A DNA stretch of 64,000 nucleotides from Nostoc sp. HK-01 (GTDB taxonomy: Bacteria; Cyanobacteriota; Cyanobacteriia; Cyanobacteriales; Nostocaceae), in NCBI GenBank assembly GCA_003990705.1, contig AP018318.1, positions 1,491,501 through 1,555,500 on the forward strand, given 5' to 3'. The notes below the pieces were generated by a model. The model had not been told where the DNA came from. It did not search any database and saw nothing but the letters and a program-made list of their open reading frames with translations. Within the stretch, counting starts at the first letter, position 1. Each line of letters starts with the position of its first letter. The translations under genes and the position numbers were made by a program. Of this stretch, positions 16,636-27,577 are shown in pieces.

Positions 16636-17937
16636 ATGGCAGAAAAATTTAATCAGCAATCTCCCTTGCGGATGAAATTGAATTTACTTGTTTCTATTAG
16701 TAGTAGTTTAGCGATCGCCAGTCATATCCTACCCATCAGCGCTTTAGAAATCCCCACACTTCCTAGACAATTCCAACTTGCTAAAACCCCCGATGAACGC
16801 CAACCAGAAGCAGTACAACAAGGTATTGAGCAAATTCCGGCTGCGGAACCACCTGTAACTCCACAACCTAATCAATCTATTGATTCACCGTTACCACCGC
16901 GTGTCCCACCTCAAGAAACTAATTCAACTCCGCAACCAGCGCCTGAAAACTCTACACCGAGAGAAACCAACTCACCACAACCAGCACCTGCAAACTCTAC
17001 ACCGAGAGAAACCAACTCACCACAACCAGCGCCTACTAGATCTACTCCTAGACAAGCTACACCGAGAGAAACCAACTCACCACAACCAGCACCTACTAGA
17101 TCTACTCCTAGACAAACTAATCCCACACCGCAACCATCACAAACTCGTTCTACATCTACAACTCCAGGACGAAGACAAACACCAAACACTAATTCAGGTA
17201 GAACCAGAAACCAAAAACCCAGAGGCGTAGCTGCTGCATCCTCTGGAACACCTGCTTATAAAAAAATCAACTTTGTCGATATTGCTTTCGGGATTTTAGA
17301 TAAAAAAGATTTTCAAGCTCAAGGTAGACCATATCATTTCTACCAATTTGAGGGTAGAGAAAACCAACTGATTCAAATTCGGCTATTGGGTAGTGCAGAT
17401 CAACGACGTTCTAATAACTTAAGTTTACGTCCTTATATGTTTCTCCTCGACCCCAATAATAACGTTATCCTCAAAAGAGGCGGTGGAGAAACAGATAGAG
17501 ATGCTTTTATATTTGCGCGATTACCTGTAGCGGGTACATATACGATCGCAGTCACCAGTCAAAACCCAGGTGATACAGGCCGTTATAGTCTTGCTATCCG
17601 AGATGATAGAGCCAGCTATATTTTAGATGAATCTGGAGAACTGAGTCAGCAAAACTTAGTCCTCAAACAAAATGGTACACCTTATAATGTGACACAATTT
17701 CAAGGCACAAAAAATCAACTAGTGAGTATTCGTGTAGATAGTGTAAATGAAGAGTTTTCACCTTATATAGTTTTACTCAATTCTCAAGGACAGAGGATTG
17801 CTGCTAATAGCGATCGCGATGGTAAATATAGCGCCCTCATCGACCGAGCTAGATTACCTGAAGATGGTACTTATTATATAGTTGTGACTTCTAGTAATCC
17901 CACCCAACGTGGTAATTACCGATTAACTTTGTTTTAA
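16636..17937 (+). CDS. Secreted protein with Pro/Thr-rich repeats and two PPC-like beta domains
   Basis: This 433-residue protein has a likely signal peptide (hydrophobic run LLVSISSSLAIASHILPIS, about residues 16-36). Residues 75-200 are a low-complexity Pro/Thr/Gln/Ser/Asn linker built from short repeats such as TPRETNSPQPAP. Two similar domains follow, about residues 210-325 and 330-433. Each contains HFYQFEGRENQLIQIRL-like and GTYTIAVTSQNPGDTGRYSL-like strands, which match bacterial pre-peptidase C-terminal (PPC) beta-sandwich domains. No catalytic domain is present, so it may be an extracellular or outer-membrane-associated binding protein. The linker DNA contains direct repeats with 45- and 60-base spacing. 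GAGGAG precedes the ATG. Confidence 0.75.
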   Translation: MAEKFNQQSPLRMKLNLLVSISSSLAIASHILPISALEIPTLPRQFQLAKTPDERQPEAVQQGIEQIPAAEPPVTPQPNQSIDSPLPPRVPPQETNSTPQPAPENSTPRETNSPQPAPANSTPRETNSPQPAPTRSTPRQATPRETNSPQPAPTRSTPRQTNPTPQPSQTRSTSTTPGRRQTPNTNSGRTRNQKPRGVAAASSGTPAYKKINFVDIAFGILDKKDFQAQGRPYHFYQFEGRENQLIQIRLLGSADQRRSNNLSLRPYMFLLDPNNNVILKRGGGETDRDAFIFARLPVAGTYTIAVTSQNPGDTGRYSLAIRDDRASYILDESGELSQQNLVLKQNGTPYNVTQFQGTKNQLVSIRVDSVNEEFSPYIVLLNSQGQRIAANSDRDGKYSALIDRARLPEDGTYYIVVTSSNPTQRGNYRLTLF

Positions 17938-18228
17938 AAAAGTTTACAAAATCAAGGTTGACAATATCCCTTTTCTGTTGATTTAGTTAGCCACCATAAA
18001 CATTGTTATATTTTTTGGTAGTCCTTGGACTGCTAACACAACGTATACTGCGGCTGACATCGCATCAATTGGGGTAGAACACAGGAAAATGTTTTTAGTC
18101 TTTTGTTGGGGGTTTTGACTAACTGTATATATAGCAGAAGGCAGGAGGAAAAGTCTTATTATTCCTGGCATTCCAGCTTTCAAATTGTCCTAACATATCT
18201 GACTACTGCTATAAAAGCGAACTGTCTT

Positions 18229-18376
18229 ATACCATTTCACTAAATAAATGATACGAATAATTTCTCCTCCGCACCCCTGCTCCTCTGCCCACGCCAGTCG
18301 CTACAAGTCGGGAAACCCGCCCAACGCGCTGGCTCCCCTGCGGTCTATTTGTATCAAACTTAAAGTGAAACGGTAT
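18229..18376. mobile_element. Probable MITE-like element upstream of the glycan cluster
   Basis: The 148-base segment has imperfect terminal inverted repeats of about 31 bases, starting ATACCATTTCACT on the left and ending AGTGAAACGGTAT on the right, with about 23 of 31 positions matching. The interior carries a GC-rich stretch (18285-18350) unlike the AT-rich surroundings. No reading frame is present. The rest of the 754-base spacer 17938-18691 holds no gene I can support: the short open frames at 17983-18183 and 18391-18585 lack ribosome-binding sites and protein-like composition. Confidence 0.5.
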
Positions 18377-18617
18377 TACTCTGCGGGAAGGTGAAGCCTA
18401 CGCTTCTACAAGTTTTGGCGAAGGTATATATCTTGACAAGCCAAATAATCAAGCAATATCAATTATTCTCAAGAGTTTTATTGAGAAATATATCTACATA
18501 TTCAAATGTATTGATTTATAGACAGTTTTCAAACATAATTTTTTACTGTGCGATCGTTGCTTTTGTAAAACTTGAGATTTACTAGCAAATTTGCTTCATT
18601 AAAACTTTCATGTTCAG

Positions 18618-18660
18618 GTAAATTATTATACCTTATACTTTTCTGACTCCTGTTTATTTT
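18618..18660 (+). promoter_or_regulatory. Consensus NtcA class II promoter (GTAN8TAC-N23-TATTTT)
   Basis: GTA at 18618-18620 and TAC at 18629-18631 are separated by exactly 8 bases. After 23 bases comes TATTTT (18655-18660), which fits the TAN3T minus-10 box. This is the published architecture of promoters activated by the nitrogen regulator NtcA, which binds around -41.5. Transcription would start about 7 bases further on, giving a leader of roughly 25 bases before the wzm-like ATG at 18692. The match is seen in the sequence; regulation is inferred. Confidence 0.6.
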
Positions 18661-18691
18661 TCTGCTTTATTTTTGGTGTGGGTGCTTCAAG

Positions 18692-19498
18692 ATGTTCTGG
18701 CAATTAAAAGCGAGTTTGCAGCGATCGCACGTGCAGCATTACTGGGAATTGCTACAAGTATTAGTAGCAAGGAATTTAAATGTGCGTTACCGAGGCTCGT
18801 TTTTAGGAGTGTATTGGTCGCTGCTCAATCCACTACTAATGACAGGAGCATATACAGCAATTTTTGGTACGACTTTCGCTTCTTATTATGGCAATTCTAT
18901 TTTCAACTATGTGCTGGCAGTATTCACCGGACTGGTAGTAATTAACTTCTTCTCAGCATCTACAGGTCAAGCCTTATTGAGTGTAGTGAACAATGGGACG
19001 TTATTGAACAAAATTAATTTGCCAACTAGTGTTTTTCCGGTATCAATGGTTGTCGCAAATATCTTTCAGTTTGCAGTCGGAGTTTTTCCTTTACTAGCAT
19101 TAGTGACATTAATTAATTCCAAAAGCTTAGTCAATGTATTTTTGTTGTTGTTACCCTTACTAGCGCTGGTGCTTGTATGTATTGGAATTAGCTTGCTAGT
19201 GAGTGCTTTATTTGTATTTTTTAGAGATTTGCCTTATTTCTATGAATTGGTTGTTTCTCTACTTTGGTTAAGTAGCCCTATATTTTATCCAGTAGTAATT
19301 GTGCCAACAACAGTAAAGACATTTTTGGTACTGAATCCTTTGTTTCCAGTGATTGAAAGTATCCGTCAAATTTCTTTATCAGGAGCATTGCCAGAAGTTC
19401 ACTTAATTGTACACTCACTTTTAAGCGGAATTATTTTTTTGGCTCTAGGAATAACTTGCTTTCGCTGGTTGCGAACTTCATTTATGGATTTGCTGTAG
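18692..19498 (+). CDS. Polysaccharide export ABC transporter permease (Wzm-like)
   Basis: This 268-residue inner-membrane protein belongs to the ABC-2 polyol/polysaccharide exporter permeases (Wzm, RfbD, KpsM-like). The N-terminal segment VLVARNLNVRYRGSFLGVYWSLLNPL is the family signature. About six hydrophobic helices follow, including IFQFAVGVFPLLALVTLI and LLLLPLLALVLVCIGISLLVSAL. The conserved FRDLPYFYEL and SPIFYP segments are present. It would form the channel for a lipid-linked or nascent glycan. The ATPase gene starts at the base after its stop, so translation is likely coupled. It is the first gene behind the NtcA-type promoter. Substrate unknown. Confidence 0.9.
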   Translation: MFWQLKASLQRSHVQHYWELLQVLVARNLNVRYRGSFLGVYWSLLNPLLMTGAYTAIFGTTFASYYGNSIFNYVLAVFTGLVVINFFSASTGQALLSVVNNGTLLNKINLPTSVFPVSMVVANIFQFAVGVFPLLALVTLINSKSLVNVFLLLLPLLALVLVCIGISLLVSALFVFFRDLPYFYELVVSLLWLSSPIFYPVVIVPTTVKTFLVLNPLFPVIESIRQISLSGALPEVHLIVHSLLSGIIFLALGITCFRWLRTSFMDLL

Positions 19499-20239
19499 AT
19501 GGAAGTCATTCGTCTAAATCAAGTTTCTCTGTGGCGACGTACGCAAGAAGAGTTTTCTTATGACTTGAAGAAAACTATCTTGTCTTTTTTAGAAGGAAAG
19601 TATCGTTACCCTGCTAAAAAGTTGGTGCTAGATCGAATTGATTTAGTAGTGAAATCAGGAGAAAAAGTAGGAATTATTGGGGCGAATGGAGCAGGAAAAT
19701 CTACACTTTTGAAGCTAATCTGTGGAATTTTGCAGCCACAGCAGGGAGTTGTGCGAGTAAAAGGGAAAATTGCGCCATTAATTGAGTTAGGTGCAGGGTT
19801 CGATCCAGAAATTTCCGTGATGGCTAACATTATCTTTTATGGAGTAATGCTGGGATTTTCACGACAAGAAATGATGAAGAAAGCAGCATCAATTTTAGAG
19901 TTTGCTGAACTACAAGATTATTCCTTAGTACCAGTAAAAGTATTATCATCTGGTATGGTAGCACGGTTGGGTTTTGCGATCGCCACTGATGTACAGCCAG
20001 ATATTTTGATTCTTGATGAAGTACTATCTGTTGGGGATGAAAGTTTTAAGAATAAATGCAAGCGGCGAATTGAAAAGTTTTGGGCTGCGGATGCTACAGT
20101 TTTGCTAGTTTCTCATGATTTGGATTTTATCAGACAGTCATGTGAACAGGTAATTTGGTTGGATCAGGGAAAAGTGAAATTAATAGGAGATGCTAACCAC
20201 GTAATTGAAACATACCTCACAACTACAAAAAATTATTGA
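19499..20239 (+). CDS. Polysaccharide export ABC transporter ATPase (short Wzt-like)
   Basis: This 246-residue cytosolic ATPase is the partner of the preceding permease. Visible motifs are Walker A GANGAGKST at about residues 61-69, a Q-loop region ending in the LIELGAGFDPEISVMANI segment typical of Wzt/TagH, a signature-like VLSSGMVARLGFAI, Walker B ILILDEVLSVGDESF, and the switch histidine in LLVSHDLDFI. The protein stops shortly after the nucleotide-binding domain, so it lacks the C-terminal carbohydrate-binding domain of O-antigen Wzt proteins. By analogy with KpsT-type systems, export may not require recognition of a capped chain end. Stop and start codons abut with the permease. Confidence 0.9.
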   Translation: MEVIRLNQVSLWRRTQEEFSYDLKKTILSFLEGKYRYPAKKLVLDRIDLVVKSGEKVGIIGANGAGKSTLLKLICGILQPQQGVVRVKGKIAPLIELGAGFDPEISVMANIIFYGVMLGFSRQEMMKKAASILEFAELQDYSLVPVKVLSSGMVARLGFAIATDVQPDILILDEVLSVGDESFKNKCKRRIEKFWAADATVLLVSHDLDFIRQSCEQVIWLDQGKVKLIGDANHVIETYLTTTKNY

Positions 20240-20313
20240 AATAACAATATTGTTCTTGGAAATTGAGTATTTATAACGCCTTTAATCACTAGCTTAGAAA
20301 TTTAGCCAAATAC

Positions 20314-21615
20314 ATGAATAAATATCCATATAAAATTGCTTTTTTTTCTCCAGACTTAGAACAAGTAGTGCATCGGGGAATTGCAATTTATACAAAAATG
20401 CTTTTAAAATGCACTGACCGGCTAGGATATGCAAACTACTTAATTACAGGAGCAAAATGTACAAAAACTCATCCTTTAGTGCAGCAAATTCTTATTGAAA
20501 AGCATTTAGACAATCCGTCTCATCATCCTTCCGTCTCTAAGCTCATGGCTTATTGGCTTAAAAATCAGCTTGGTTTTTCACATTTAGTAAAAATAGAGCG
20601 TGAGCGAACTACAGAAACTAGCGATCGCATGACATTTTTGCATAACCTGAAGGGATTTTTAAATCAAAAATTGATTTATCAGCTAGTCCAAAATGTTCAA
20701 CCAAGACTGCTTAAAAACCCTTATAAACTCAATATTAGCCCCAACTTTAATATAGTATTTTCTACATCTCCCTCTAATATTCGTGTTCCCCGCCAAACTA
20801 AGCTTGTGCAAACACTTCATGATATTATTCCGATTACGCGAAATGATCACCCCGATAATACATTTATCTTTTATCGTCGAGTGCAGAATATGTTGCGTCA
20901 CTCAGATCTAGTTCTCAGCGTTTCTGAAACCTCACGTCGAGATATGTTGGCGATTTTTCCAGAATATGAACAGAAGATAGTCACAGTTTATGAACCACTA
21001 GCTGATCTGCCTTTGTTGGCTCTTAAACAAATAGATGAATCTCTAGTTTTAAATAAATATCAGATACAACGCCAAAACTACTTATTATTTATTAGTTCTT
21101 TAGAAAAACGTAAAAATGTTTTTCGGATGACTGAAGCTTATTTAGGAGTACAAGAAAAAGTTGGCTTACCTTTAATAATTATCGGAGAAAAAGATGTAGG
21201 TAATTCAGAAATTATCCCATTACTAAATTCGCTAAATTGTAAAAATAAAATTAGGTATTTAGGCTATATTTCTAATGTGGAAAAATTTATCTTATTAAGA
21301 AATGCCTTAGCTTTTATTTTTCCTTCACTGTATGAAGGATTTGGATTACCGCCTTTAGAAGCAATGCAAGTAGGATGTCCTGTTTTGGCATCTCAAGCAG
21401 GTTCACTTCCAGAAGTTTGTGCTGATGCTGCATTGTATATAGAAGATCCTCTGAGTACTTTAAGTATTGCTCAAGGAATCTTAAAAATAGTCAAAAACCA
21501 AGCACTACGACAGGAACTTAGTATGAAAGGATACATTAGAGCTAGTGAATTTAGCTTTGGCAAATATCAACAAAGGCTGAGTGAAATTCTAGAAAATTTG
21601 TTGTTTAGATACTAA
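20314..21615 (+). CDS. Glycosyltransferase, GT4-like
   Basis: This 433-residue GT-B-fold enzyme is likely to transfer a sugar from a nucleotide donor during glycan assembly at the cytoplasmic face. The C-terminal half has the family 4 features: ISSLEKRKNVFRMTEAYLGV near residue 260, a GYISNVEKFILLRNALAFIFPSLYEGFGLPPLEAM segment with the EX7E-type motif (E at the start of EGFG and E of LEAM), then GCPVLASQAGSLPEVCADAALYI. The N-terminal half is diverged, with HDIIPITR near residue 169. Donor and acceptor cannot be told. It lies 74 bases after the ATPase and is probably in the same transcript. Confidence 0.85.
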   Translation: MNKYPYKIAFFSPDLEQVVHRGIAIYTKMLLKCTDRLGYANYLITGAKCTKTHPLVQQILIEKHLDNPSHHPSVSKLMAYWLKNQLGFSHLVKIERERTTETSDRMTFLHNLKGFLNQKLIYQLVQNVQPRLLKNPYKLNISPNFNIVFSTSPSNIRVPRQTKLVQTLHDIIPITRNDHPDNTFIFYRRVQNMLRHSDLVLSVSETSRRDMLAIFPEYEQKIVTVYEPLADLPLLALKQIDESLVLNKYQIQRQNYLLFISSLEKRKNVFRMTEAYLGVQEKVGLPLIIIGEKDVGNSEIIPLLNSLNCKNKIRYLGYISNVEKFILLRNALAFIFPSLYEGFGLPPLEAMQVGCPVLASQAGSLPEVCADAALYIEDPLSTLSIAQGILKIVKNQALRQELSMKGYIRASEFSFGKYQQRLSEILENLLFRY

Positions 21616-21699
21616 GCTATTTCAAGTTTATTAAATAGGTAAGCATTAATAAACAAAAAGTTTATCGATAGTGATATTAAATATTTATAATGTTTTCTA

Positions 21700-22746
21700 A
21701 TGAGAGTTGTAGTTGCTAGAACTTGTATTCCATTTGTTTTTGGCGGTGCGGAAATCCTTGCTGAAGAATTAATAAATGCTCTTCAAACTGCTGGTCATTT
21801 AGTCGATACTATTAATATTCCATTTACCAATTATTCACCGGAGAAGCTTTTAGATAATATTCTAGCTTGTCGATTATTAGAAGTAAGTCGTCCTGGAAAA
21901 CAAGATATTGATCGCTTAATAGCTCTTAATTTTCCTGCTTACTTGATTCCTCATCCAAATAAAGTTATTTGGTTAATTCATCAATATCGAGCAGCTTACG
22001 ATATGTGGGATACACCTTTAAGCCACTTACAGCAAGTATCTAACAATTTACAGATTAGAGCCGCAGTTTATCGGGCTGACCAAAACGCATTTTTAGAGAG
22101 CCGACAAATTTATACAATTTCTCGTAATGTTTCTCGCAGATTAAGTGTGTTTAATCACTTAGATTGCGAGTATTTATACCATCCTCCGCGAAATGCAGAT
22201 CAGTTTTATTGTGATATTCCTAGAGATTATATTTTCTTCCCAAGTCGAATTACACAAATTAAGCGTCAAGAGCTAATTATTCAAGCTTTGTCATGGACGC
22301 AACAGCCCGTCAAAGTCCTGTTCGCTGGAACTGCTGATGTTGATGACTATATAAAAACCTTAGAAATTTTAGCTGAAAAATTGCAAGTTAGCGATCGCGC
22401 CATATTTCTTGGCAGAATTAGTGAGTCGGAAAAAATTCAATATTACGCCAAGTCTAGAGGGGTTGTTTATCCTCCAGTAGATGAAGATTATGGTTATGTC
22501 ACCCTAGAAGCAATGCTATCTGCAAAACCTGTCATTACCTGTACAGATTCAGGAGAACCTGTAGAGTTCGTGCATTCAGGAGAAACTGGTTGGGTAGTAG
22601 AACCAACTCCACAAGCACTGGCAGATGCAATGGATAAACTCTGGGTTAATGCTCATCAAGCAGCCCAAATGGGTCAACAAGCTCGTGAAAAATACAAAAG
22701 TTTAAATATTGATTGGGTAACTGTTGTACAGAAGTTATTGAAATAA
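21700..22746 (+). CDS. Glycosyltransferase, GT4-like
   Basis: This 348-residue GT-B enzyme begins VVVARTCIPFVFGGAEILAEEL, the classical acceptor-side GT4 N-terminus with the GGAE loop. The donor-side domain has FPSRITQIKRQELIIQAL near residue 180, then VVYPPVDEDYGYVTLEAMLSAKPVITCTDSGEPVEFV near 265, in which D/E-x7-E (DEDYGYVTLE) is the catalytic motif. It likely adds one sugar to the glycan of this cluster; specificity is not visible. The next glycosyltransferase starts 2 bases after its stop, implying coupled translation. Confidence 0.87.
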   Translation: MRVVVARTCIPFVFGGAEILAEELINALQTAGHLVDTINIPFTNYSPEKLLDNILACRLLEVSRPGKQDIDRLIALNFPAYLIPHPNKVIWLIHQYRAAYDMWDTPLSHLQQVSNNLQIRAAVYRADQNAFLESRQIYTISRNVSRRLSVFNHLDCEYLYHPPRNADQFYCDIPRDYIFFPSRITQIKRQELIIQALSWTQQPVKVLFAGTADVDDYIKTLEILAEKLQVSDRAIFLGRISESEKIQYYAKSRGVVYPPVDEDYGYVTLEAMLSAKPVITCTDSGEPVEFVHSGETGWVVEPTPQALADAMDKLWVNAHQAAQMGQQAREKYKSLNIDWVTVVQKLLK

Positions 22747-22748
22747 AG

Positions 22749-24101
22749 ATGCAAACACAACTACTTATAAAGAAAAATGATTCATACAATTTAAAAATTA
22801 ACTGGTTCTCTCCTATACCGCCAGCACCCACAGGCATAGCAGATTACACAATCGGACTGGTAAAAGAGCTTAGTAAGTTTCTAGAAGTAACAATTTGGAC
22901 AGAACAACAAGTTTACGAGCCAGAAATTACCCATTATGCGATTGTAAAAACTTATGATTTCTCTTGCTTCCCTTGGGCGGAATTGCATGAAGCTGACTTA
23001 AATATTTACCACATAGCAAATAATCCAGATTTTCATACAAATATCTGGCAAGTGAGTCAGCAATATCCTGGACTAGTGGTTCTTCATGATGCAAAACTTC
23101 ATCACTTATTTAGTGGAATATATCGAGATAAATGGCACGACCAAAAAACTTATTTACAATTAATATCTTATTACTATGGTGAGACAGGAAAAAGACTAGC
23201 TGATATATTTTTGGATGGACAAATCTCTATTGAGTGGATGTCTGAAAACTTTCCTCTGACAGAATTAGCAGTTGCAGGATCTATAGCAGTTGTTGTTCAT
23301 AACTCAGAAACAGCACAAAATATACAAAATAAATTACATATACCTGTTCATTATTTGCCACTTTGTTATAACTTCACGTATTTACCTAGCTCTGTTACTG
23401 ATCGAATTCTTGAACTTCCATATCAATTAATTACTTTTGGGCATTTAGGGTTAAATCGACGTATAGAGCAGGTATTAAAAGCATTACAAACTCTACCCCA
23501 ACAAAAAGATTTCCATTGGCATATTTATGGTAGTATTTGGGACAAAAAATATTTCCAAAAACAAATCTGCACATTAGGATTACAGAATCACGTTAGTGTT
23601 CATGGATTTGTACCAGATCAAGTTTTGCATGAAGCGTTAAGTCAAGCTCATCTGGCAATTAACCTCCGCTATCCATCTATGGGAGAAGCATCAGGATCTC
23701 AGCTATGGATTTGGCAACACGCTTTGCCTAGCCTAGTCACAGATATCAGTTGGTATCACTCTTTACCATCTGATACAGTCGCTAAAGTGCGTCTAGAGTG
23801 TGAAATTCAAGATATTCAAACTCATTTACAGAACTTTCATACTAACCCCGATGCTTTTATGGCAATGGGTTTAAGAGGAAAAGCATTACTAGAAAAGCAG
23901 CACTTGCCATCAACTTATGCAAAACAACTTGTGCAAATTATCTCCACAATGACTGTATCTTATCGGTTATCTTCTAATCCCATTGTGCAAGACTATTTTG
24001 TCAAAAAAGTTGGTGAGGAGTTTCCAGAACTTTCCACAAATCTTTGGCTGCATTCAAATGTCGATGGAATTAACCAGGCAATCCGTTTTATTACTTCTTA
24101 A
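22749..24101 (+). CDS. Glycosyltransferase, GT4-like
   Basis: This 450-residue GT-B enzyme begins with INWFSPIPPAPTGIADYTIGLVKEL near residue 16, the N-terminal loop of GT4 enzymes that recur in cyanobacterial polysaccharide clusters. LITFGHLGLNRRIEQVLKAL opens the donor domain, and INLRYPSMGEASGSQLWIWQHALPSLV contains the E-rich active-site segment. The ATG at 22749 is chosen because it follows the previous stop by 2 bases and removes an atypical 12-residue leader. No ribosome-binding site is obvious, which fits coupled re-initiation. Substrate unknown. Confidence 0.84.
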   Translation: MQTQLLIKKNDSYNLKINWFSPIPPAPTGIADYTIGLVKELSKFLEVTIWTEQQVYEPEITHYAIVKTYDFSCFPWAELHEADLNIYHIANNPDFHTNIWQVSQQYPGLVVLHDAKLHHLFSGIYRDKWHDQKTYLQLISYYYGETGKRLADIFLDGQISIEWMSENFPLTELAVAGSIAVVVHNSETAQNIQNKLHIPVHYLPLCYNFTYLPSSVTDRILELPYQLITFGHLGLNRRIEQVLKALQTLPQQKDFHWHIYGSIWDKKYFQKQICTLGLQNHVSVHGFVPDQVLHEALSQAHLAINLRYPSMGEASGSQLWIWQHALPSLVTDISWYHSLPSDTVAKVRLECEIQDIQTHLQNFHTNPDAFMAMGLRGKALLEKQHLPSTYAKQLVQIISTMTVSYRLSSNPIVQDYFVKKVGEEFPELSTNLWLHSNVDGINQAIRFITS

Positions 24102-24178
24102 ATTTTATTTTGATTTCCTTGGTATTCAGTAATTTTAAGAAGTACAGTTCCTCGTGTAGATAAAAGTTTGTTTATTAT

Positions 24179-25483
24179 ATGTTTTCTGAAAAAAATATAA
24201 AAATTGCAAAGTATTTAGCTATTTTTCTCAACAATATTGATAATATTAACATCCAAAAAGCACTTGATGAATTACAGATTTATAGCTTTCAAGGTATCCG
24301 CCAAATTTCAGATGAAGTGTTTGCGAATCATCAATATTTATCAACTTTTATCAATAATGTTCAGAACTATATTCAATCAACTAATTTGATTGAAGAAGAC
24401 TCAGAAATTGCCTGCGATTTTTTTATTACTTTTTTATACAACATATTTTTAAGTAGAAATCCAGAGAATCAATTTGTTATTCAGCCTTGTGCTGAGATAA
24501 CTATTAAACAAAAAATATGGGATTTTTTCCACTCACAAGAGTTTTTAGAAAAAACCGCAAAATCCTTAAGAATTGAATACAAATACCCAAATTATAATAA
24601 GGAAAATATACTGCTTATAGGTAATTGTCAAGCAGAAGAATTATTTAAAATATTGAGTATCTTTCAAGATAAGTTTAATATTTTTGTTTTATGTGTAAAT
24701 TATGAATTAAGTCAATCATTTCAAGATACTACTTTCGTAGAAAGTCTGACTCAAAGATATAAATTTATTCTTACTCAAGAACTTTTTGATGAGAAAACAT
24801 TTGGCAAGCTAATAACAGCCAATCTTCGCAGTCTAGCGCCAGAAAAAGTTATCATTTTACCAAATATTTATTTTCGAGGTCTTCATCCTGACCTAGTTGG
24901 TTATAAATTGTATTCATCTCCTTTTATTGATCATCACTCAAGCATTGCTTTCAAGCTTCATTATGATAAAATAACGGCAAAATCTAATGATAATTTATCC
25001 AAAAATATTAAGGGATGTATTGATTCGCTAAAAAAAGAGCAGATATTTATGAATTCTTTTTTAGAGTTAATCAAGAGGGATAAGCGATGGGATGTTAAAA
25101 TATTTGATTTTATTAATAACAATTTACTATTTTTGCCGCTATTACTAACTTTTAGTCATCCTACAAATTTATTAATAACTGAGATTGCTAAAAGAATTAT
25201 TAACTATTTAGAAATAAATGATAATAAATATTCTTTACCTAGCTCAGAATTTATTGTCACTGATTGGATAAATGCGCCTATTTGGCCTATCTATGATGAA
25301 ATACAGAAATATTTTAGCTTACAATATAACACTCCCAAAATATTTCAGTGTAAAGGTTTATACAAATATGGTTTAACTATTGAAGAGTTCATTAATCTTA
25401 GTATGGATAAATATAGCGAAATTGAAGACGAAGAATTTATTCCTGTATACAATGAACTAGGAATTGCGGAAAATTTTTACTAA
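24179..25483 (+). CDS. WcbI-like polysaccharide modification protein with an N-terminal helical domain
   Basis: This 434-residue protein resembles WcbI, a CoA-binding, SGNH-like presumed acetyltransferase of capsule clusters. Matching features are ILLIGNCQAEEL with Gly148-Asn149-Cys150-Gln151, PNIYFRGLHPDL with His236, and FSHPTNLL with His327. These positions in sequence recall the GNCQ...HPD...HPxN pattern of WcbI. The first 130 residues are helical. One stretch there (CDFFITFLYNIFLSRNPENQ, then IWDFFHSQEFLEKT) recalls DUF4214 modules found in glycan-active proteins. The gene is clearly more AT-rich than the housekeeping genes. It would decorate the exported glycan, probably by O-acylation; that role is inferred. 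Confidence 0.65.
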   Translation: MFSEKNIKIAKYLAIFLNNIDNINIQKALDELQIYSFQGIRQISDEVFANHQYLSTFINNVQNYIQSTNLIEEDSEIACDFFITFLYNIFLSRNPENQFVIQPCAEITIKQKIWDFFHSQEFLEKTAKSLRIEYKYPNYNKENILLIGNCQAEELFKILSIFQDKFNIFVLCVNYELSQSFQDTTFVESLTQRYKFILTQELFDEKTFGKLITANLRSLAPEKVIILPNIYFRGLHPDLVGYKLYSSPFIDHHSSIAFKLHYDKITAKSNDNLSKNIKGCIDSLKKEQIFMNSFLELIKRDKRWDVKIFDFINNNLLFLPLLLTFSHPTNLLITEIAKRIINYLEINDNKYSLPSSEFIVTDWINAPIWPIYDEIQKYFSLQYNTPKIFQCKGLYKYGLTIEEFINLSMDKYSEIEDEEFIPVYNELGIAENFY

Positions 25484-25681
25484 AGTAAGTCTGTTAGCAC
25501 TGTGGTTAAATTCTGGTCACTAATATAGAATTTTACGATCCTAACAAGCAAGCTGATCCTGATTCAACTGCCACTTGACTCATGTATGTTGAAAGCCTAA
25601 ATAATCAGGCGATCGCTTTTATTTTGAGTACTTATAGCAATTCTATTTGATTTGTGAATATCTAAAGAATAGTAATAAAAT

Positions 25682-26179
25682 ATGCTATCCCAACATGAAA
25701 CAGATATTTTTGCGACATTAATTGAAAATTACAGTATGGCAGGAGAATATCTTTTAGAAGAGTCCAGTTCTGTGATTACTAAAACTAGTCTTAAGGATAT
25801 TACTTGGGAAAATCTGCGGATAAAAGAAACAGAGATGTATGGTATGAGAATTTTAGGTTTTCCTGATCTCCAAAAAGAGACTTTTGATAATTGGATATCG
25901 ATTAACAGCCAACCTTCCTTATTAAGTTCATGGATTAACAATCCCAAAGTGAATCTACTGTCTCGCACAGAGTATCACAACCTTTTCAATCAATATGATC
26001 ATAGATGGTCTATGTTCTATACATTAACTCGTCCAGGTTTTTCGGATGATTTTTCTCAAGCGTTAATTCAGCTGACTGCTTTTTGTCCCATAACACCACA
26101 ATATGGCAATTTGCTATATATGGAAAGAACTAGCAATAAATGGGAAACTAAATTAGATTATGGGCTATTTAATCAATAG
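25682..26179 (+). CDS. Protein of unknown function in the glycan cluster
   Basis: This 165-residue soluble protein is not one I recognise. It has no signal peptide or membrane segment. Features include a helical start (HETDIFATLIENYSMAGEYLLEES), a mixed middle rich in Trp and aromatic residues (WENLRIKETEMYGMRILGFPDLQ), and a C-terminal part with RPGFSDDFSQALIQLTAFCP. Codon use looks like its neighbours, and the phosphatase-like gene starts 15 bases after its stop, so the two are probably co-transcribed. A 198-base spacer separates it from the WcbI-like gene, so it may have its own promoter. Real expression is likely but unproven. Confidence 0.6.
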   Translation: MLSQHETDIFATLIENYSMAGEYLLEESSSVITKTSLKDITWENLRIKETEMYGMRILGFPDLQKETFDNWISINSQPSLLSSWINNPKVNLLSRTEYHNLFNQYDHRWSMFYTLTRPGFSDDFSQALIQLTAFCPITPQYGNLLYMERTSNKWETKLDYGLFNQ

Positions 26180-26194
26180 AGATTTAAAAGATTT

Positions 26195-26656
26195 ATGTCT
26201 GTTAAAAATCATCTCGCAGAAATATATAACTTCCTCCAAATATCAGATGCAATTGCCACTTCAGGACAACCAACTGCCGAACAATTTACAGCCATCAAAG
26301 CAGCAGGCTATCAACTAATAGTTAATCTAGCGTTACCAACATCAAGTAATGCTTTACCTAATGAACAAGAAATTGTCGAATCTCAAGAAATGCAATATGT
26401 ACACATTCCAGTATTGTGGGAAAATCCGACGCTGGAAGATGTGACAAAGTTTTTTGGTGTAATGGAAACAAATTCAGATAAGAAAATTTTTGTTCACTGC
26501 GCTGCTAATATGAGAGTTTCGGCTTTTATGTATCTTTTTCGCCGCATACATCAAGGGTTGAATAATGCAGCAGCCGAACAAGATTTACATAAAATTTGGG
26601 TTCCGAATGAAGTATGGCAGAAATTTATCGAAGAAGTATTAAATATCTATCAATAA
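26195..26656 (+). CDS. Protein tyrosine phosphatase-like protein with a shortened P-loop
   Basis: This 153-residue protein belongs to the dual-specificity/DUF442-like phosphatase families. ISDAIATSGQPTAEQFTAIKAAGYQLIVNLAL at the N-terminus is the usual opening. The active-site loop is VHCAANMRVSAF with Cys102 and Arg107. That is C-X4-R, one residue shorter than the classical C-X5-R, but matches the short loop of the DUF442 group. It probably acts on phosphotyrosine or a related phosphoester in the cytosol. Placed at the end of a glycan export cluster, it could counter a tyrosine kinase of the polysaccharide co-polymerase type, but no such kinase is in the window. Confidence 0.8.
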   Translation: MSVKNHLAEIYNFLQISDAIATSGQPTAEQFTAIKAAGYQLIVNLALPTSSNALPNEQEIVESQEMQYVHIPVLWENPTLEDVTKFFGVMETNSDKKIFVHCAANMRVSAFMYLFRRIHQGLNNAAAEQDLHKIWVPNEVWQKFIEEVLNIYQ

Positions 26657-26731
26657 AAGTCAGAAAAACTAACGTGAGAAATACTCTGTGTCTCTCTGCG
26701 TTAACCTTAGCGCACCTCTGCGTTAAAAAAC

Positions 26732-27577
26732 TTATTTCTGATTCACATTTGGCATCAAAACCCCATGTTTGGGACTAAATAACAATGCCAAAAGAAATAA
26801 TCCTGATACTACCAAAACAATCGCCGGGCCAGAAGGCAAATTATAAAAGTAGCTGAGATACATCCCACTAATACTGGAAAATACACCAATTATTGCACCA
26901 ATAATCATCACTTCGTGTAAGCGTTTGACCAATAAATATGCAGTTGCACCGGGGGTAATTAACAGCGATAGGACTAAAATTACACCGACAGCTTTCATAC
27001 TGGCAACAATTGTTAAAGCAATCAGCAACATTAAACCAAAGTTTAGCCGATTGACTGGTAAACCTGCGGCTTGAGCGCCTAAAGGGTCAAAGGTGTAAAA
27101 TAAAAGTTCTTTGTATATTAAAATAACTACTACTAAAACAATCGTGGCAATGATGGCTGTATCTCGCACTTCGTCAACGGTAACACCGAGAATATTGCCA
27201 AAAAGAAAGTGATTCAGATCGATTTTATTATCTTTTTGAACCACTGTAATTAAAGTGATCCCAAGGGCGAAGAATGCAGAAAAAACTATACCCATTGCTG
27301 CATCTTCTTTGATTGGCGATCGCGTCCTAATCCAGGCGATCGCCATTGTACTTAAAACCCCGGCGATAAATGCGCCAACAAAGATATTTGCGCCTATCAT
27401 GAAGGCGATCGCTAATCCTGGTAAAACAGAATGACTGATAGCATCACCCAGCAGTGCGAGTCGTTGCACCATTAAGTAACTACCCACAACTGCACACAAC
27501 AAACCAACTAAAATTGCAATGATGAGCGATCGCTGCATAAAGCCATATTGTAATGGCTCAATTAGTGCTTCTAGCAT
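26732..27577 (-). CDS. mntB: Manganese/zinc-type ABC transporter permease
   Basis: This 281-residue inner-membrane protein of the ABC-3 family imports divalent metal. It has about eight hydrophobic helices, with the family segments GLLCAVVGSYLMVQRLALLGDAISHSVLPGLAI at residues 19-51, IVFSAFFALGITLI, and the coupling-helix region FDPLGAQAAGLPV near residue 170. It follows the ATPase gene with a 32-base gap on the same strand. I use mntB because the substrate-binding protein of the locus has Mn-type ligands. Zinc or iron transport remains possible. Confidence 0.82.
   Translation of the reverse strand: MLEALIEPLQYGFMQRSLIIAILVGLLCAVVGSYLMVQRLALLGDAISHSVLPGLAIAFMIGANIFVGAFIAGVLSTMAIAWIRTRSPIKEDAAMGIVFSAFFALGITLITVVQKDNKIDLNHFLFGNILGVTVDEVRDTAIIATIVLVVVILIYKELLFYTFDPLGAQAAGLPVNRLNFGLMLLIALTIVASMKAVGVILVLSLLITPGATAYLLVKRLHEVMIIGAIIGVFSSISGMYLSYFYNLPSGPAIVLVVSGLFLLALLFSPKHGVLMPNVNQK

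What the first reader, a model, noticed from the sequence alone, without database searches (positions are those of the whole stretch)
18618..26656. Nitrogen-regulated glycan assembly and export cluster
A full NtcA class II architecture, GTAN8TAC (18618-18631), 23 bases, TATTTT (18655-18660), lies 32 bases before the first gene of a block with Wzm and Wzt-like exporter genes, three glycosyltransferases, a WcbI-like protein, an unknown gene and a phosphatase-like gene. The first five genes abut or lie within 85 bases of each other. Together this predicts a glycan made when combined nitrogen is scarce, perhaps a heterocyst-envelope or other starvation coat. The promoter match is seen directly; the regulation and function are inferred. 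By chance GTAN8TAC is expected several times in 64 kb, but the right spacing and position make this one stand out.
Basis: partly seen in the sequence, partly recalled or inferred. Interest (0 to 1): 0.75.

Follow-up and report, generated by a model that had tools for sequence, protein, structure and literature searches.

The report
Inserted glycan cassette, unproven NtcA promoter
A six-gene cassette for making and exporting a cell-surface sugar polymer has been inserted into a conserved stretch of a Nostoc-type genome; it carries a plausible but poorly conserved binding site for the nitrogen regulator NtcA, so the proposed nitrogen-controlled heterocyst coat is possible but not shown.

Summary
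The motif is real: GTAAATTATTATAC (18618-18631), 23 bases, TATTTT (18655-18660), ATG at 18692. It scores inside the range of ChIP-bound NtcA sites (32nd percentile of 22 leave-one-out sites). About a third of such full matches upstream of genes in the sampled genome are expected by chance.

The eight-gene block is not one unit. A 7.7 kb insert (about 17972-25658: wzm, wzt, three glycosyltransferases, WcbI-like) interrupts a conserved order PPC protein - unknown gene - phosphatase - znuB. Four same-genus genomes show PPC directly followed by the unknown gene. The unknown gene and the phosphatase are old neighbours, not glycan genes.

The cassette's gt2 occurs in 4 of 11 same-genus genomes, at two places, although all 11 carry HetR. 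One of the three relatives keeps GTAN8TAC, with a 21-base spacer and TATTTC; the other two lack it. Upstream of 79 wzm relatives the site is no commoner than chance, while 46 share an ordinary -10-like box.

Best reading: a variable Wzm/Wzt surface-glycan cassette that changed place within the genus; NtcA control is possible only in the window/G008 lineage. A conserved heterocyst-envelope role is unlikely.

The parts
17972..25658 (.). Inserted segment carrying the glycan cassette; interrupts the PPC - unknown gene interval
   Evidence: Homology to the uninterrupted site in G004, G005, G007, G009 ends at 17966-17971 and resumes at 25659-25664
18130..18213 (.). Dispersed repeat of about 80 bp inside the insert's left end, many copies in the genome
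   Evidence: query 171-254
18225..18380 (.). Second dispersed repeat, in pieces; approximate limits
   Evidence: query about 266-421
18440..18593 (+). Block homologous to the upstream region and first codons of a small gene found beside the Rubisco-activase gene (rca) in relatives; upstream of wzm in all four cassette carriers
18511..18539 (+). Rival promoter TTGATT-17-CATAAT, kept (TTAATT in L034) upstream of all four copies
18618..18631 (+). NtcA-like site GTAAATTATTATAC
18655..18660 (+). -10-like TATTTT, 23 bases downstream of the NtcA-like site
18692..19498 (+). wzm: ABC-2 polysaccharide export permease
   Evidence: Pfam PF01061 2.6e-13; PDB 6m96/6oih permease about 3e-16
19499..20239 (+). 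wzt: export ATPase of 246 aa, no long C-terminal extension
   Evidence: best PDB 6amx 8.1e-49, RfbE 9qfx 8.7e-47
20314..21615 (+). gt1: glycosyltransferase (Glycos_transf_1)
   Evidence: PF00534 3.1e-28
21700..22746 (+). gt2: glycosyltransferase (Glycos_transf_1)
   Evidence: PF00534 9.6e-25
22749..24101 (+). gt3: glycosyltransferase (Glycos_transf_1); the listed ORF starts at TTG 22713, ATG 22749 is preferred here
   Evidence: PF00534 9.1e-10; start seen
24179..25483 (+). wcbI-like protein; in G008 only residues 1-171 are matched
   Evidence: PF18588 6.1e-21; PDB 4bqn 0.0022
25589..25636 (+). Right-end piece matching the start of the same small-gene upstream block (own copy beside ftsH)
   Evidence: Local alignment score 34.0; 0 of 300 base shuffles reach it, maximum 17.5
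25682..26179 (+). Unknown gene: native flank, not part of the cassette
   Evidence: Beside PPC, ptp or znuB without the cassette in L168-L172
26195..26656 (+). DSP-PTPase-like gene: native flank, not part of the cassette
   Evidence: PF22741 1.5e-11

Best explanation
A variable surface-glycan cassette (wzm-wzt-gt1-gt2-gt3-wcbI) lies inserted between a PPC-domain protein gene and an unknown gene; the insertion is shown by the uninterrupted site in relatives, and the right junction shared with G008 points to one event in their common ancestor. By established knowledge of the Wzm/Wzt pathway, the three glycosyltransferases would build a glycan on a lipid carrier in the cytoplasm, the WcbI-like protein would modify it (possibly by acyl transfer), and Wzm/Wzt would export it as O-antigen, capsule or released polysaccharide (inferred). 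The cassette sits after rca in two other genomes of the genus, and in the window it carries at both ends sequence of a small gene that lies beside rca in relatives, so it most likely moved from an rca-type place and its upstream region was rebuilt (inferred). Transcription starts either from the NtcA-like class II promoter (18618-18660), possible only in the window/G008 lineage, or from the distal TTGATT-17-CATAAT shared by all four. I give the NtcA promoter being functional about 0.35 and an obligate heterocyst-envelope role about 0.05.
For: Uninterrupted site in G004, G005, G007, G009. Right junction shared with G008 and cassette beside rca in G001 and G010. Small-gene sequence at both ends of the insert. 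4 of 11 same-genus genomes carry gt2 at E <= 1e-100, 11 of 11 carry HetR_C. No stops in the aligned stretches; dN/dS 0.09-0.28 in the 17 of 18 gene pairs that could be aligned. Exporter and enzyme families. Upstream of wzm in the 79 named loci kept by a capped search (79 distinct of 152 found), 6 have GTAN8TAC within 300 bases and 1 the full form, against about 9 and 3 if the rates held there. 46 of 79 have a -10-like box at -58..-38, against 5.8 on average in bins further upstream.
Against: dS between the window and G010/G001 cassettes (0.30-0.42) is close to that of core genes (0.36-0.62), so old presence with losses and relocation is as possible as recent transfer. Between the window and G008 the cassette dS (0.25-0.35) is not lower than that of core genes (0.14-0.31), which fits a single shared insertion only loosely. 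The left border in G008 is not the same: window 17957-18368 has no match there. GTAN8TAC is kept 13 of 14 in G008 amid a poorly kept spacer and 5' flank, which hints at constraint on the site. No polymerase, chain-starting enzyme or sugar-precursor gene was recognised in the cassette, so the product is unnamed.
Confidence: 0.75

Rival explanations
1. One reading: a true NtcA class II promoter drives the cassette when combined nitrogen is scarce and the glycan is a starvation or heterocyst coat.
For: Correct spacing (23; 22-23 in hetC, glnA RNAI and nirA as printed in Table 2). Core plus downstream score 9.64 bits: 7 of 22 leave-one-out bound sites score no higher, and only 21% of 414 genomic GTAN8TAC score as high. 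Full architecture enriched threefold over controls. Site kept 13/14 in G008. NtcA binds glycan genes elsewhere: all4432 (inside the gene) and alr5307 are in the top ChIP list.
Against: Site absent in L033 and L034; in G008 the spacer is 21 and the box TATTTC. Scored with both flanks the site gets 0.09 bits, below the median (2.11) of 207 genomic GTAN8TAC. Cassette gene gt2 absent at E <= 1e-100 from 7 of 11 HetR-bearing same-genus genomes.
Confidence: 0.3
2. The motif is a chance match and the cassette is transcribed constitutively from the distal TTGATT-17-CATAAT captured from the small gene that lies beside rca in relatives.
For: Hexamers and 17-base spacing present in all four cassette carriers (TTAATT in L034), 150-152 bases before the start in the window and G008, 213-214 in L033 and L034. 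The block is homologous to the upstream region of an intact gene.
Against: Promoter-like matches are fewer than in shuffles of the region (21 against 35.5), so a match means little. It implies a leader of about 145 bases. In G005 and G009 the small gene lacks the -35 part of the block. The block may be kept simply because it is young.
Confidence: 0.45
3. The eight genes form one conserved functional operon including the unknown gene and the phosphatase.
For: Same strand; 15-base gap between the last two genes.
Against: Insertion junction at about 25659. The unknown gene (with the phosphatase in four of the five) lies beside znuB in G003, G004, G005, G007, G009, none of which has gt2. Two further genomes with the unknown gene, G025 and G032, were not examined for neighbours.
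Confidence: 0.03

Closest known systems
ABC-transporter-dependent (Wzm/Wzt) O-antigen and capsule clusters of cyanobacteria, reviewed in PMC4390846 (passages read)
   Same: wzm-wzt pair heading a run of glycosyltransferases; wzt within 100 bases after wzm in 69 of 79 named relatives, with differing genes behind
   Different: No chain-starting, polymerase or precursor gene recognised in the cassette; WcbI-like gene added
alr4485-alr4494 cell-surface cluster of Nostoc PCC 7120, rich in phage-resistance mutations (PMC10811720 section 11 and passages; PMC12507012 section 23 and passages)
   Same: Glycosyltransferase-rich, mostly non-core, described there as shaped by lateral transfer; surface function
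   Different: Not compared gene by gene here; a link of this cassette to phage is untested
NtcA class II promoters (PMC3898017: section 6, part 1 of section 11, and passages)
   Same: GTAN8TAC, 22-23 bases, TAN3T
   Different: Lacks the TACA and A-rich flank of most printed top sites; full form not kept in relatives with the same cassette
WcbI (PMC4104973, title and start of abstract in the listing only)
   Same: Pfam WcbI domain match over residues 144-348
   Different: 434 aa with an extra N-terminal part; only a weak PDB match (E 0.0022)

Membership tests
NtcA class II activated promoter | GTAN8TAC site | tested here: met
   18618-18631
NtcA class II activated promoter | TAN3T box about 22-23 bases downstream | tested here: met
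   TATTTT after 23 bases
NtcA class II activated promoter | Score comparable with ChIP-bound sites | tested here: inconclusive
   32nd percentile with downstream flank; poor when both flanks are scored
NtcA class II activated promoter | Conservation in orthologous clusters | tested here: not met
   GTAN8TAC in 1 of 3 relatives, full architecture in 0 of 3
NtcA class II activated promoter | NtcA binding and start site | not testable with these tools
   Needs EMSA, ChIP or dRNA-seq
Wzm/Wzt polysaccharide exporter | ABC-2 permease and cognate ATPase in tandem | tested here: met
   adjacent in 69 of 79 named relatives
Wzm/Wzt polysaccharide exporter | Glycosyltransferases alongside | tested here: met
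   Three Glycos_transf_1 proteins
Heterocyst-envelope polysaccharide genes | General presence in heterocyst formers of the genus | tested here: not met
   gt2 orthologue in 4 of 11, HetR_C in 11 of 11
Heterocyst-envelope polysaccharide genes | Relation to the known HEP-island genes | not tested
   The known hep genes were not searched in this genome
Heterocyst-envelope polysaccharide genes | Mutant unable to fix nitrogen in air | not testable with these tools
   No mutant data

The most novel reading that the evidence does not exclude
In the window/G008 lineage only, the move of a surface-glycan cassette rebuilt its promoter and placed it under NtcA, so that the cell's surface coat, and with it perhaps its phage receptor, changes with nitrogen supply in these strains and not in relatives that hold the same genes.
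Probability: 0.25. Interest if true: 0.5.

Novelty: new member of a known kind. Interest (0 to 1): 0.27.

Why it matters
If NtcA control is real it would give a natural comparison: the same glycan cassette with and without a nitrogen-responsive promoter in neighbouring species. That would bear on the reported link between nitrogen supply, surface glycans and phage resistance in Nostoc (PMC12507012). If not, it is an ordinary variable surface-polysaccharide island, and a caution against reading regulation from one motif match.

Tried and rejected
Rejected: the eight-gene unit; a conserved heterocyst role. A plasmid copy was sought and not found: one 37-base match only. No Rfam family reached its threshold in 17800-26800. 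A repeat search of 17930-18700 gave one inverted pair with 601 bases between its arms and no direct repeat; insertion-sequence genes at the borders were not searched for as such. An NtcA matrix with both flanks was judged unfair because the printed sites lack upstream flanks; the core plus downstream version with leave-one-out is the one relied on, and both are reported. The -10-like pattern was chosen after viewing the sequences, so its count is descriptive; a stricter pattern matched 13 of 79. No structure prediction was run: for the unknown gene a single sequence gives poor models. A PDB search with it gave nothing below E 0.1. A paper search on O-antigen islands and cyanophages in Nostoc was seen as a listing only.
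Full report
Observation. Nineteen GTAN8TAC occur in the window against a mean of 10.8 in 100 shuffles, 3 of which reach 19. The background was measured on 864 kb of the same genome: the window plus 40 stretches of 20 kb from its largest contig, out of 7.52 Mb. Genes were modelled crudely as ORFs of 90 aa or more. In 555 upstream segments GTAN8TAC alone is not clearly enriched: 52, against a mean of 41.7 and range of 20-63 for 23 control palindromes. The complete architecture is: 17 against a control mean of 5.7 and maximum of 10. Roughly one in three such matches is thus expected by chance.

Quality of the site. From the 40 top ChIP-seq sites printed in PMC3898017 I built a matrix. With the core and six downstream bases, the window site scores 9.64 bits. 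Seven of 22 left-out bound sites score no higher, and 21% of 414 genomic GTAN8TAC (both orientations) score as high. Scored with both flanks it gets only 0.09 bits, below the median of 207 genomic GTAN8TAC, because it lacks the TACA and A-rich flank. Of 27 GTN10AC matches in the window with TAN3T 20-25 bases downstream it scores second; the first lies inside the unknown gene, on the other strand.

What the block is. Pfam and PDB searches support an ABC-2 permease, a Wzt-type ATPase without a long C-terminal extension, three Glycos_transf_1 glycosyltransferases, a WcbI-domain protein, an unknown protein and a DSP-PTPase. In G004, G005, G007 and G009 the PPC-domain gene is followed directly by the unknown gene, in three of these four then by the phosphatase, and then by znuB. 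In G010 the order is PPC - phosphatase - znuB and in G002 PPC - znuB, also without the cassette at this place; in G001, G003 and G006 no PPC gene was matched in the stretch fetched. Window homology to the uninterrupted site stops at 17966-17971 and resumes at 25659-25664. The left border cuts an inverted repeat that follows the PPC gene in the relatives (seen by eye). The unknown gene and the phosphatase are thus old neighbours of znuB. G008 shares the right junction, but its left border differs (window 17957-18368 has no match there), and it has lost the 3' part of wcbI, nearly all of the unknown gene and the phosphatase.

Where else it occurs. Of the 11 same-genus genomes held, 4 have a gt2 orthologue at E <= 1e-100: the window's, G008, G001 and G010. 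All 11 have HetR_C. More distant gt2 relatives (43-56%) occur in G035, G042, G046, G048 and G059, and L049 has wzm, wzt and relatives of gt2 (58%) and gt3 (47%), so the enzyme set is not confined to the genus. There the cassette follows rca, a Rubisco-activase gene. G001's contig ends before wcbI could be seen. In G010 a small gene with a homologous upstream block stands after wcbI, and a truncated copy of that block precedes wzm. The window's upstream block 18440-18593 is the same truncated copy, and the genome's full small gene lies beside ftsH. The right end of the window's insert, 25589-25636, also matches that block: score 34.0, against a maximum of 17.5 in 300 base shuffles. Both ends of the insert thus carry small-gene sequence, and the simplest history is a move from an rca-type place. 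Synonymous divergence (cassette 0.30-0.42, core genes 0.36-0.62, for G010 and G001; cassette 0.25-0.35, core 0.14-0.31, for G008) does not tell transfer from old presence with losses. dN/dS of 0.09-0.28 in 17 gene pairs shows purifying selection.

Conservation of the promoter. In G008 the site reads GTAAAGTATTATAC, 13 of 14 kept, while the spacer and 5' flank around it are poorly kept. This is a point in favour of constraint. But the spacer is 21 and the box TATTTC, so TAN3T is lost. In L033 and L034 there is no GTAN8TAC within 400 bases. Among the 27 wzm loci at about 57% identity or more, L001, L004, L012 and L017 have GTAN8TAC, start codons being uncertain in some; L017 also has a full match. 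Among the 79 named loci, 6 have GTAN8TAC within 300 bases (about 9 expected if the rate held in them) and 1 has the full form (about 3 expected). Instead 46 of 79 share a -10-like box 38-58 bases before the start, against 5.8 in bins further upstream (pattern chosen after viewing). None of the four cassette carriers has it. All four keep TTGATT (TTAATT in L034)-17-CATAAT, 150-152 bases before the start in the window and G008 and 213-214 in L033 and L034.

Mechanism. Shown: insertion, gene families, purifying selection, motif. Inferred: a lipid-linked glycan is built by the three enzymes, perhaps modified by the WcbI-like protein, and exported by Wzm/Wzt to the surface. The alr4485-alr4494 surface cluster of Nostoc PCC 7120 is mostly non-core, and mutations in it accompany phage resistance (PMC10811720, PMC12507012). 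That function is a lead here, not a test. NtcA control is possible in the window/G008 lineage (about 0.35). NtcA is known to bind some glycan genes in PCC 7120, so the idea has precedent. The heterocyst-envelope reading conflicts with patchy presence; the known hep genes were not searched here.

Verdict. The motif is a fair match and the cassette is real, but the eight-gene unit, the conservation of the promoter and the heterocyst role do not hold. It is an ordinary kind of system with one testable regulatory question. The names wzm, wzt, wcbI, rca, ftsH and znu follow from the family matches; the gene names gt1-gt3, unk and ptp are mine.

Noticed in passing
17960-18445: Two dispersed repeats (about 80 bp, and a second in pieces) with many copies in the genome; one search listed 50 matches, the query itself included.
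   Followed up: partly
25682-26656: An unknown gene and a DSP-PTPase gene form a pair next to znuB in G003, G005, G007 and G009 (unknown gene alone in G004); no Pfam hit for the unknown protein.
   Followed up: partly
L112 14483-15171: In G008 the cassette's wcbI is matched only to residue 171 and most of the unknown gene and the phosphatase are missing, leaving the right junction intact.
   Followed up: yes
L034 15431-16702; L033 11668-12972: An extra gene on the opposite strand lies after gt3 (in L034 between gt3 and wcbI); the L034 copy has DUF4214 and methyltransferase matches. It is absent from the window's cassette.
   Followed up: partly
upstream of wzm in L033-L111: Many of the wzm relatives share a proximal leader resembling TAGTATAAAATGCGCGAATAACTTGCC...GTGTGTGGTGG before the start codon; its -10-like part is not shared by the window's clade.
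   Followed up: partly
25772 (- strand): A GTN10AC-TAN3T match scoring as well as the reported site (9.72 bits) lies inside the unknown gene on the opposite strand, which shows how easily such matches arise.
   Followed up: no
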